NCBI RefSeq assembly: GCF_016278385.1
Contig: NZ_JADQBY010000016.1
Span: forward strand, 1-64,000
DNA: 64,000 bases
Source: Methanolobus sp.
Lineage (GTDB): Archaea > Halobacteriota > Methanosarcinia > Methanosarcinales > Methanosarcinaceae
Direction of reading: 5' to 3'
Both the position numbers and the translations under genes were made by a program. The notes under the pieces were generated by a model. It ran no database searches. It saw nothing but the letters and a program-made list of their open reading frames with translations, and was not told the origin of the DNA. This document shows positions 52 to 5,435 of the stretch, piece after piece. How positions within the stretch are numbered: position 1 is the first letter of the stretch; each line of letters starts with the position of its first letter.

Positions 52-148
52 TATAGAGGATTTCGATAAACCCCCACTTTCAACCAATTGCTTATAAGGA
101 GTATATATGCCGAGTTTCAAAAAATAGGGTTTTTCGAAATCCTCTATA
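52..148. repeat. 97-bp palindromic-ended element (MITE-like), copy 1
   Basis: TATAGAGGATTTCGATAAACCC ... GGGTTTTTCGAAATCCTCTATA; identical to 1552..1648 and similar to 3368..3464. Confidence 0.85.
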
Positions 149-601: not shown

Positions 602-1181
602 CAGTTATGTTACCTTTTAGGCACTATAGCAAACTTATTGAAATCACAATCTATAGCTGAAATTATGAAAATAATCAATATAATAGAGACCATATCGAAG
701 TTTTATTAACTTGAACATTTGTTTGAATTTGGAGGTATTCTACAGAACCCTACTTCAATACTTCTTTTAAACATTCTCCTATTACACCGTAAAAAATGTA
801 ATATTAAGATATCATTCAAAATAAAAATTGCAGACAATGCTTTCCAAAAGACTTTTATTTAATATTTCAACATAGAACAATGGATACAAAATCCGTACAA
901 CAAATGGGGAATTACTGTGGAAGTGCAATGCCTACTCGATTCGAATATGAACCATATCGTAGAAGAGGTTGATAGAGCTATTCATTCAGAGTTGAAGATA
1001 CTCTTTAGAAAGATAGCAATCTGATATGAAAGGTTTAATGTGGTTTTCAAAGGATTATTAGATATCGCATGCTCTATGTCGTATTGGAAAAAAGTTAACC
1101 AGAAGTTTTGAAATCGGTTTCATAGAAAAACGCAGCTTGAAATATCATGCCGAACATAAATCAAAAATATGGGGAAATACA

Positions 1182-1412
1182 ATGGCAATGAAGGAAAATA
1201 AGTTAGCTGAGAATGTTGATGGTGCTTATTATGTTGATGATGACTGTATAGGCTGCCGACTTTGTGAGGGCAACGCACCTAAAAACTTCAAGATGAAGGA
1301 TGATGATTCTACAGCCTACGTATTCAAGCAACCAGAAAATGAAAAAGAGAAGCATGTTTGTGAGAATGCTCTGGATGAGTGTCCTGTAGAGGCAATTGGA
1401 AACGATGGTTGA
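1182..1412 (+). CDS. 4Fe-4S ferredoxin, single-cluster type
   Basis: CIGCRLCEGNAP ... CENALDECPVEAI; likely start is MAMKENK at 1182. Confidence 0.8.
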   Translation: MAMKENKLAENVDGAYYVDDDCIGCRLCEGNAPKNFKMKDDDSTAYVFKQPENEKEKHVCENALDECPVEAIGNDG

Positions 1413-1424
1413 GATTTGAAAATC

Positions 1425-1553
1425 GGCTGTAGAAAAACTCTAAATTCATGAGACTTATCATGTTAACAATTTTTCAAAGTACTTCAGAACATGACCATAT
1501 TTGCTCACTGTAATTGACTGGTTCCCTTTTTGAGAGGGTTTCTGCAGAGTCTA
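1425..1553. repeat. Degenerate MITE-like element with TIRs resembling those of 5714..5849
   Basis: Left GGCTGTAGAAAA, right TTTCTGCAGAGTCTA (inverse TAGACTCTGCAGAAA); compare TAGGCTCTGTAGAAA at 5714. Confidence 0.4.
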
Positions 1554-1648
1554 TAGAGGATTTCGATAAACCCCCACTTTCAACCAATTGCTTATAAGGA
1601 GTATATATGCCGAGTTTCAAAAAATAGGGTTTTTCGAAATCCTCTATA
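1552..1648. repeat. 97-bp palindromic-ended element, copy 2
   Basis: Identical over 97 bp to 52..148. Confidence 0.85.
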
Positions 1649-1755
1649 ATATATGAAGTAATATATAGAAATGGAATGAGACAGTTATTTATTCGATAAT
1701 TTATAAATTAGGGATAAATATTTTATTTGAAAAAAAGAAAATGTGGAGTGAAATA

Positions 1756-1932
1756 ATGGTAGCGATTGTAAATAGAGAACTGTGCACAGGATGTGGTCAA
1801 TGTGTTAATATCTGTCCAATGGAAGCCATTTTGCTGGACGACGAAAGCATTGCGGTTGTTGATTTAAATTCGTGTATAGACTCTGGAAATTGTGTAGATG
1901 TTTGCCCAGTTGAAGCTATTTCAATAGAGTGA
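1756..1932 (+). CDS. 2x[4Fe-4S]-type ferredoxin with modified second cluster motif
   Basis: CTGCGQCVNICP and CIDSGNCVDVCP; GGAG-type RBS precedes ATG 1756. Confidence 0.85.
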   Translation: MVAIVNRELCTGCGQCVNICPMEAILLDDESIAVVDLNSCIDSGNCVDVCPVEAISIE

Positions 1933-1984
1933 ACACCTTTTATTCGACGAATTATGAGAAATTCAGAACTGGGGATAAATAAGA

Positions 1985-2536
1985 ATGATGGGTATTGAAG
2001 ATTTGAGGCATGAACACAATGAAATAAGTTTAATGCTTGATGTTATGGGAAGGATCTGTGAACTACTCGATGCAGGGGAAAATATTGACCCGGTACACAT
2101 TAAACAGCTATATGATTTCATGGTTGTTTTTGTGGATGAGTGCCATCATGGAAAGGAAGAAGAGTTTTTGTTCCCTAAGTTGGAATCTATTAATGGCGAG
2201 GAATCTAAAAAACTAATTGGTGTGCTTATAGCAGAGCACAAAGTTGGTCGTGAATATGCAAGTATTATAGTTGAAGCTATTTCTAATCATGAAAATATAG
2301 ATTTAGAGAGTCGTTCAAAAATAATTAAGTATGGAAGGAACTATATCAAGCTCTTGACTCAACACTTTAATAAAGAAAATAAAATCCTTTTCACGATGGC
2401 TGAAAAGAAACTCTCAGATAAGGAGAATCAAGAGTTGTTTGAAGAATTTGAGATTGTGGTAAAGGAAAAGATTGGAATGAACAAATGTGAACAATTACAT
2501 GAAATGCTTCACCAACTGGCTGATATTTATCTATGA
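1985..2536 (+). CDS. Hemerythrin HHE cation-binding domain protein
   Basis: HEHNEI ... HHGKEEEFLFP ... EHKVGREY ... HFNKENKILF. Confidence 0.85.
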   Translation: MMGIEDLRHEHNEISLMLDVMGRICELLDAGENIDPVHIKQLYDFMVVFVDECHHGKEEEFLFPKLESINGEESKKLIGVLIAEHKVGREYASIIVEAISNHENIDLESRSKIIKYGRNYIKLLTQHFNKENKILFTMAEKKLSDKENQELFEEFEIVVKEKIGMNKCEQLHEMLHQLADIYL

Positions 2537-3367: not shown

Positions 3368-3464
3368 TATAGAGGATTTCGATAAACCTTCGATTTTAAC
3401 CAATTGCATATAAGGGGTTTATATGCCGATACCCAGATTTCCGGGTTTATCGAAATCCTCTATA
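3368..3464. repeat. 97-bp palindromic-ended element, copy 3 (divergent)
   Basis: Perfect 21-bp terminal inverted repeat TATAGAGGATTTCGATAAACC/GGTTTATCGAAATCCTCTATA; core AACCAATTGCATATAAGGGGTTTATATGCCGA. Confidence 0.85.
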
Positions 3465-3497: not shown

Positions 3498-3890
3498 TTA
3501 CATTGCCAGAACATGCTTCCATTCAAATATTCCTATATCACCATCAAATTTGGATTCAGGATGATTGGCATACTCTATTATTGTCCTGCTAAGTTGCTTG
3601 AAATACTGAGATCCTTGCTTCATCTCTCCTGTTTCATAATCAATAAACAATTCATAATCAATCTCTTCGTATTTTATTTCCTTATACTTGGAAAGTGAGA
3701 GGTCGTAGTTATTTTCCTTGATTTCATCAAATGGAACATAGAAGCATTTACCCTTCCTGTCCTGAGGATTCTCTGTTTTCCTGTTCTTGTACCTCTCAAT
3801 TATATCAAGAATATCCCCTCTCTTATCAATTGGAGTTCTCTTGTCATCCAGAGAGTAACCGTCTGCTTCCATGTCATAGAACCAGACCAC
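3498..3890 (-). pseudogene. C-terminal fragment of a type I restriction-modification methyltransferase (HsdM-like)
   Basis: VWFYDMEADGYSLDDKRTPI ... DIIERYKNRK resembles HsdM C-termini; catalytic N-terminal part absent. Confidence 0.65.
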
Positions 3891-4156: not shown

Positions 4157-5435
4157 TCAGTACTTTGCTAATTTTAACAATAAATCCAAAATTACCTTTC
4201 GATAGCTTTATATGCGGCGGGAACGCCGCCATATGTCTCTTCTAGCATCCAATCCAAACACCTGTGCTAAAGTCGAATTAAGACCTAAAGAATGCATTGA
4301 TACTGTTCTAAAATCCCTTACAGATAATATCACCATTAACATCAATGGTTCACTTACCTGTAAAGACCTGTTTTATACTGCCATATGTATGGCAGTAGAG
4401 AATAGTTCGATCCATTCCATATCAAAACACTATCAACAGATTCCTTGTGAAACATCTACAAGATATCATCTCAGGAAACTGAATCTTGAAGAGCTTATCA
4501 GGATAAATAAAAAGATCCTGCTTCAAGGTCCTATTAATACTCTGAAAACAGAGAAGAAGTATGAGTTTGCTATCGATTTTACCAATGATCCTTATTATGG
4601 AAAAACGAATTCATCCAATGAAAACTATGTGATACGTAGTCAGGCCAAGAAGTCAACAAACTCATTTTATTCATACGCTTCATTATCCATAATAAACAAG
4701 AACGAGAGATTCACTATATCTGTTCTTCCAATGGAGAAAAGTAAAACAACAGTCTATTACCTCAACTATTTTCTTGATACGATAAATAATCTAAATCTAA
4801 AGATTAAGGTTCTTTGTTTGGATCGAGGATTTTATTCTGTTGATGTTTTTAAATTTTTACAAAACAAAGAGATTCCTCATATAACACCTGTAGTAAAAAG
4901 AGGAAACAAGATCAAGCTACTACTTATCGGCAGAAATGCAAGATATACTGAATATGTAATGAAGAATCCTCAGAAGAAAGAGGTTAGATTGGATATTGTA
5001 ATCGATGTCAAGTATCTGAAAGGTAAAAGAAACAAAACAGGATGTGAAAATCTTGGATTTGTAGTTTATGGACTTGAATGGAAACCTAGGAAGATCAGCA
5101 ATGTATACAGAAGACGGTTTGCTATTGAATCATCTTATCGAATGAGAAATATAGTCAAACCAAAAACATCTACAAGAGACGTTACTTTAAGGTATTTCTT
5201 TGCATTGATATCGTTCCTGCTTAGAAATACATGGCTCTACATTCAGAAAAAGCATTTCACGATTGTAAAGCAAGGTCCTCAGACAATTGATGAGGACAAG
5301 TTCAGATTTGATCGATTTATTCTGTTTGTTGGGGAATGGCTTAGAAGAAAGCTAAGGATTCAGCTAGTTGTGCAGTGTTTGAGGTAGAATGATTGCGGTA
5401 AAAGCAAAAAGGATGGAAAATTAGCAAAGTACTGA
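4157..5435 (+). mobile_element. Insertion sequence, ISH3-family-like
   Basis: Perfect 19-bp TIRs TCAGTACTTTGCTAATTTT (4157-4175) and AAAATTAGCAAAGTACTGA (5417-5435) flank an intact transposase. Confidence 0.85.
4212..5387 (+). CDS. ISH3-like DDE transposase
   Basis: 391 aa; FAIDFTNDPYYGK, LCLDRGFYSVDVFKFL, RRRFAIESSYRMRN motifs of an IS4-like DDE fold. Confidence 0.85.
   Translation: MRRERRHMSLLASNPNTCAKVELRPKECIDTVLKSLTDNITININGSLTCKDLFYTAICMAVENSSIHSISKHYQQIPCETSTRYHLRKLNLEELIRINKKILLQGPINTLKTEKKYEFAIDFTNDPYYGKTNSSNENYVIRSQAKKSTNSFYSYASLSIINKNERFTISVLPMEKSKTTVYYLNYFLDTINNLNLKIKVLCLDRGFYSVDVFKFLQNKEIPHITPVVKRGNKIKLLLIGRNARYTEYVMKNPQKKEVRLDIVIDVKYLKGKRNKTGCENLGFVVYGLEWKPRKISNVYRRRFAIESSYRMRNIVKPKTSTRDVTLRYFFALISFLLRNTWLYIQKKHFTIVKQGPQTIDEDKFRFDRFILFVGEWLRRKLRIQLVVQCLR

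What the first reader, a model, noticed from the sequence alone, without database searches (positions are those of the whole stretch)
52..148. Family of 97-bp palindromic-ended elements, two copies identical
Three copies lie within 3.4 kb (52-148, 1552-1648, 3368-3464), all exactly 97 bp. The first two are identical and the third is diverged. Each is bounded by ~21-bp inverted repeats beginning TATAGAGGATTTCGA and ending CGAAATCCTCTATA, with no ORF. The TA at each outer end fits insertion at TA sites, as in IS630/Tc1-type MITEs (inference). Identity of two copies suggests recent movement or conversion.
Basis: partly seen in the sequence, partly recalled or inferred. Interest (0 to 1): 0.65.

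Follow-up and report, generated by a model that had tools for sequence, protein, structure and literature searches.

The report
An 89-bp non-autonomous IS5-type transposon family
The three 97-bp repeats are copies of a tiny gene-less transposon (a MITE) of a methane-producing archaeon; it borrows the transposase of an IS5-family insertion sequence, and it is an ordinary kind of mobile DNA with an unusually constant length and a conserved twin TATA-like centre.

Summary
In detail: three 97-bp copies, two identical, with inverted-repeat ends and unrelated flanks. The host genome holds 8 copies in 3 subfamilies. The "MITE" reading holds, but the family assignment does not. Each 97-bp unit is an 89-bp element (GAGGATTTCGA...TCGAAATCCTC) flanked by a 4-bp target duplication. 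An exact 4-bp repeat flanks 58 of 111 copies (7.4 expected from re-dealt flanks); 2- and 3-bp repeats are not enriched. The duplication is often, but not always, TATA, which produced the "TA" impression. Empty homologous sites confirm insertion of 89 bp plus 4 bp. IS630 elements in these genomes have different ends (TAGTGTC...). The matching autonomous element is an ~1.15-kb IS5-family IS with the same TIR and a 4-bp duplication. One degenerate full-length copy sits in this genome, further unassembled copies end at contig edges, and intact copies occur in relatives. The MITE occurs in 49 of 112 family genomes (10 of 14 genera: Methanolobus, Methanosarcina, Methanococcoides and others), mostly between genes. 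Its length is nearly fixed (88-90 bp), and it has a symmetric twin TATA-like centre that the IS lacks. New member of a known kind; the fixed length and centre are its only surprising features.

The parts
52..148 (+). MITE copy 1 (subfamily A): 89-bp element 56-144 plus TATA target duplications 52-55 and 145-148
1552..1648 (+). MITE copy 2 (subfamily A), identical to copy 1: element 1556-1644, TATA duplications 1552-1555 and 1645-1648
   Evidence: self-comparison shows unrelated flanks
3368..3464 (+). MITE copy 3 (subfamily B; its sister copy at G000:C7:50897 has TTTA duplications): element 3372-3460, TATA duplications
   Evidence: the family-consensus orientation of this copy is the - strand
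56..71 (+). left TIR of copy 1, GAGGATTTCGATAAAC (first 13 bases identical to the left end, all 16 to the right end, of the full IS at G000:C52:20221-21367)
129..144 (-). right TIR of copy 1 (GTTTTTCGAAATCCTC on the + strand)
92..108 (.). central twin TATA-like boxes of copy 1 (element positions 37-53, TTATA...TATA), conserved across genera and absent from the IS
1592..1608 (.). central twin TATA-like boxes of copy 2
3408..3424 (.). central twin TATA-like boxes of copy 3

Best explanation
The repeats are copies of a non-autonomous DNA transposon (MITE) of 89 bp. An IS5-family DDE transposase, made by ~1.15-kb insertion sequences with the same terminal repeat, binds GAGGATTTCGATA at both ends, cuts the MITE out or copies it, and inserts it with a 4-bp staggered cut (AT-rich target, often TATA) between genes. 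Shown here: shared ends, equal duplication length, empty sites, many copies at unrelated places, and the partner IS family in the same genome. Inferred: that this transposase acts on the MITE. Also inferred: that the near-fixed 89-bp length and the symmetric TTATA...TATAA centre are kept because only copies of that shape transpose well, for example because the short DNA must be bent, with or without a host protein, to bring its ends together.
For: Exact 4-bp duplications in 58 of 111 copies against 7.35 expected and at most 15 in 500 re-deals; no excess at 2, 3, 5 or 6 bp. Gapless empty sites at G000:C9:230 (homologous repeats without the insert in the own genome at C47 and in G002, G012, G013, G050) and at G000:C9:9236 (G022, G021). 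An IS of 1147 bp in the own genome with identical 11-bp ends and a GTTT duplication, and full copies in many relatives with the same TIR type and 4-bp duplications. The transposase passes NCBIfam transpos_IS5_4 (217.5 bits, cut-off 140) and Pfam DUF772 and DDE_Tnp_1. Contig edges C10, C20, C35, C51 and C23 stop about 54 bp inside a related IS end; C23 and C10 carry a shared CAGA on the outside, as one unassembled copy with a 4-bp duplication would. 49 of 112 family genomes carry the MITE. Insertion point inside an open frame in 7 of 104 copies against 40% of control points. 30 of 34 pattern hits, free to vary over 59-120 bp, are 87-90 bp. Conserved boxes.
Against: No transposition was observed. 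The assembled full-length partner in this genome has an internal stop, and the presumed intact copies are not assembled. Many MITE-bearing genomes gave no close transposase hit at E <= 1e-50, and G002 has at least 20 IS copies but no MITE, so presence of the two does not correlate simply. Only the ends are shared with the IS, so descent by internal deletion is not shown.
Confidence: 0.9

Rival explanations
1. IS630/Tc1-mariner-type MITE inserting at TA dinucleotides.
For: The outer ends often read TATA...TATA. A published table lists an 89-bp M. mazei MITE with an IS630 partner (PMC3852290).
Against: The duplication is 4 bp and often not TATA. Multi-copy IS630 elements of two Methanosarcina genomes have TAGTGTC/TAGTGACC-type ends. 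A separate 88-bp family with CTAGTGTC ends exists in Methanosarcina and fits the published IS630 element better.
Confidence: 0.02
2. A mobile regulatory module: a MITE by origin, but kept because its twin TATA-like centre gives neighbouring genes divergent promoters, or its hairpin gives a terminator.
For: Symmetric TTATA/TATAA boxes at fixed positions, an intergenic bias, and a strong hairpin if transcribed (z -5.66). Copy 2 lies 92 bp upstream of a ferredoxin-like gene.
Against: No conserved position beside particular genes was tested or seen. Intergenic bias is expected from selection against gene disruption. RNA pairing beyond the 11-bp TIR is not supported by covariation. No Rfam match.
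Confidence: 0.12
3. Copies 1 and 2 are a local duplication or gene-conversion pair rather than two insertions.
For: Identical sequence 1.5 kb apart.
Against: Homology stops at the element borders. 97-98% identical copies sit on other contigs (C9, C51). Conversion of one pre-existing copy by the other remains possible.
Confidence: 0.1

Closest known systems
IS5-family insertion sequences of Methanosarcinaceae (NCBIfam NF033581 transpos_IS5_4)
   Same: Same terminal repeat GAGGATTTCGATA and same 4-bp duplication.
   Different: 1.15 kb with a transposase of about 314 aa. Outside the ends the MITE shares no recognisable sequence, and the IS lacks the twin TATA-like centre.
Archaeal MITEs with IS5 partners listed by Kamoun et al. 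2013 (PMC3852290, Table 4: 140, 147, 185 and 252 bp)
   Same: Short, gene-less, IR of 15-17 bp, in Methanosarcina/Methanococcoides, similar to the partner only at the ends.
89-bp M. mazei MITE with IS630 partner ISMma9 (PMC3852290, Table 4)
   Same: Same nominal size and IR length (89 bp, 16 bp).
   Different: Assigned to IS630. Most likely it is the separate CTAGTGTC-ended 88-bp family seen, not this one. This is an inference.

Membership tests
MITE (non-autonomous, short TIR element) | Short, no transposase gene | tested here: met
   89 bp; only spurious frames cross it
MITE (non-autonomous, short TIR element) | Multiple copies at unrelated sites | tested here: met
   8 in own genome; 111 curated copies overall
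MITE (non-autonomous, short TIR element) | Target duplication and clean empty sites | tested here: met
MITE (non-autonomous, short TIR element) | Autonomous partner with same TIR and same duplication length | tested here: met
   IS5-family IS in own genome and relatives
MITE (non-autonomous, short TIR element) | Mobilised in trans by that transposase | not testable with these tools
   needs a transposition assay
IS5 family (partner) | IS5-family transposase above the curated cut-off | tested here: met
   NF033581 217.5 bits, cut-off 140; DUF772 and DDE_Tnp_1
IS5 family (partner) | 4-bp duplication, as in the IS5 subgroup (duplication length of the subgroup from own knowledge) | tested here: met
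   GTTT, CAAG, ATTA, TATA and others
IS630/Tc1-mariner | TA target, 2-bp duplication | tested here: not met
   2-bp matches at chance level, 4-bp strongly enriched
IS630/Tc1-mariner | TIR shared with an IS630 element | tested here: not met
   IS630 ends in two Methanosarcina genomes are CTAGTGTC, TAGTGACC or similar; no convincing match in the other loci
Structured RNA family | Covarying base pairs or Rfam match | tested here: not met
   only the 11-bp TIR pairs, little covariation; only a tRNA found by Rfam in the window

The most novel reading that the evidence does not exclude
In Methanosarcinaceae two MITE families with different ends (this IS5-type one at 89 bp and a CTAGTGTC-ended, IS630-like one at 88 bp) have nearly fixed lengths. 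This could mean that a host DNA-bending or wrapping factor (TBP on the twin TATA-like boxes, or archaeal histones) sets the size of a transposable mini-element.
Probability: 0.1. Interest if true: 0.65.

Novelty: new member of a known kind. Interest (0 to 1): 0.3.

Why it matters
It corrects a likely mis-filing (IS630 by a TATA border) with a duplication count and empty sites, and it links a MITE family spread over at least ten genera to its IS5 partner. If the conserved length and centre reflect a requirement for transposition, the family is a compact natural system for studying how very short elements are synapsed in archaea.

Tried and rejected
TA/IS630 origin: rejected by 4-bp duplications and by IS630 ends. 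Structural RNA: no Rfam match and no covariation beyond the TIR. Segmental duplication: rejected. Descent by simple internal deletion of the known IS: no internal similarity and no central motif in five IS copies. Identity with the published 89-bp M. mazei MITE: first thought likely, then judged unlikely after finding a separate 88-bp CTAGTGTC family. Viral copies: the single pattern hit in viral contigs lacks proper ends. Pattern hits in Nitrosomonas and Paenibacillus look like chance. The key 2007 review of archaeal ISs is not in the library.

Full report
OBSERVATION. A search of the whole genome (2.88 Mb, 52 contigs; the window is contig C16) found eight full copies: C16 three, C9 two, and one each on C51, C7 and C47. 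They form three subfamilies, each with near-identical members at unrelated places: A (C16:52, C16:1552, C9:230, C51:1558), B (C16:3368, C7:50897) and C (C9:9236, C47:16833). Self-comparison shows that copies 1 and 2 share essentially nothing beyond the 97 bp.

BORDERS. The C7 copy reads TTTA-GAGG...CCTC-TTTA, which suggested that the true ends are GAGG/CCTC and that TATA is a 4-bp target duplication. Among 111 curated copies from many genomes, an exact 4-bp repeat flanks 58, against a mean of 7.35 and a maximum of 15 in 500 re-deals of the flanks. Repeats of 2, 3, 5 or 6 bp are not enriched. TATA is the commonest target (16 of 58), followed by TTTA, TGTA, TACA and TAAA; targets are AT-rich, but TGAG and CAAG also occur. 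Two own-genome insertions have empty homologous sites. C9:230 interrupts another repeat of about 130 bp whose uninterrupted copies (own C47; G002, G012, G013, G050) align without a gap across the junction once 89 bp plus one TATA are removed. C9:9236 likewise has empty relatives in G021 and G022.

PARTNER. The same TIR bounds an IS of 1138-1155 bp in relatives. Its transposase scores 217.5 bits against NCBIfam transpos_IS5_4 (cut-off 140) and matches DUF772 and DDE_Tnp_1. The IS copies are themselves flanked by 4-bp duplications (GTTT, CAAG, ATTA, TTAG, TATA and others). In the window's own genome a full-length copy at C52:20221-21367 has perfect ends and a GTTT duplication, but an internal stop in the transposase frame. 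Five contig edges end about 54 bp inside a related IS end, and two of these (C23 end, C10 start) carry the same CAGA outside, as expected of an unassembled multi-copy IS. That an intact copy exists in this genome is therefore likely but not shown.

IS630 TEST. IS630-type elements (Pfam DDE_3) were collected from eight genomes. The ends of the multi-copy ones, five sets from G101 and G096, are CTAGTGTC, TAGTGACC or similar, and none of the loci shows convincing GAGGATTTCGA ends.

SPREAD AND SHAPE. A profile of 29 copies finds the family in 49 of 112 genomes of the family, in 10 of 14 genera (at most 39 candidates per genome were scored, so counts in the richest genomes are lower bounds). Named records include Methanosarcina, Methanolobus, Methanococcoides, Methanomethylovorans and one Methanofollis MAG copy with a GATA duplication. 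Length was tested without a profile: pattern hits free to vary over 59-120 bp are 87-90 bp in 30 of 34 cases. Over 49 copies less than 85% identical, conservation is high in the TIRs, low in the arms, and high again at ATTT/AAAT boxes and at a central TTATA (37-41) / TATAA (49-53) pair, all symmetric about the middle. The IS copies lack the centre. The insertion point lies inside an open frame of at least 100 codons in 7 of 104 copies, against 40% of control points 200-250 bp away.

MECHANISM. Best reading: cut-and-paste or copying in trans by the IS5-family transposase, with a 4-bp stagger. The step from shared ends and equal duplications to actual mobilisation is inference. Keeping length and centre constant while the arms diverge is best explained by selection for transposability, perhaps through DNA bending; this is speculation, and a promoter role of the centre is not excluded.

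KNOWN OR NEW. Kamoun et al. 2013 (PMC3852290) list archaeal MITEs, including IS5-partnered ones of 140-252 bp in Methanosarcina and M. burtonii, and an 89-bp M. mazei MITE attributed to an IS630 element. A pattern search shows a separate, abundant Methanosarcina family with CTAGTGTC ends and a nearly fixed 88-bp length (61 of 75 counted). That family fits the published IS630 entry better than the present one does. I found no description of the present family in the held library, but ISfinder and the 2007 review of archaeal ISs could not be consulted.

Noticed in passing
L384 (G096:C1:56742-56823), L385 (G108:C1:362174-362261), L386, L387 and other Methanosarcina genomes: A second MITE family with CTAGTGTC...GACACTAG ends (as in local IS630 elements) is also nearly fixed in length: 88 bp in 61 of 75 counted copies, with a possible range of 73-103.
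   Followed up: partly
L090 about 1690-1820 (G000:C47) and L089 about 130-345 (G000:C9): A further repeat of about 130 bp with ends GGCTCTGTAGAAA; the C9 copy is interrupted by the 89-bp MITE, and relatives carry uninterrupted copies.
   Followed up: partly
window 4212-5387 (+): A complete-looking ISH3-family transposase gene (NF033541, 287 bits).
   Followed up: no
window 3498-3890 (-): A truncated N6 DNA methylase-like frame next to MITE copy 3.
   Followed up: no
window about 149-671: Apparent remnants of other mobile elements; stretches recur in many relatives and 618-671 resembles an end found near the C9 MITE.
   Followed up: partly
window 1137-2536: Two small ferredoxin-like genes and a hemerythrin-domain gene lie between or beside MITE copies 2 and 3 (for the second ferredoxin and the hemerythrin; the first judged from its sequence).
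   Followed up: no
G002 (complete genome, same genus): At least 20 copies with a 100% identical IS5-family transposase, yet no MITE hit: a partner-rich, MITE-free genome.
   Followed up: no
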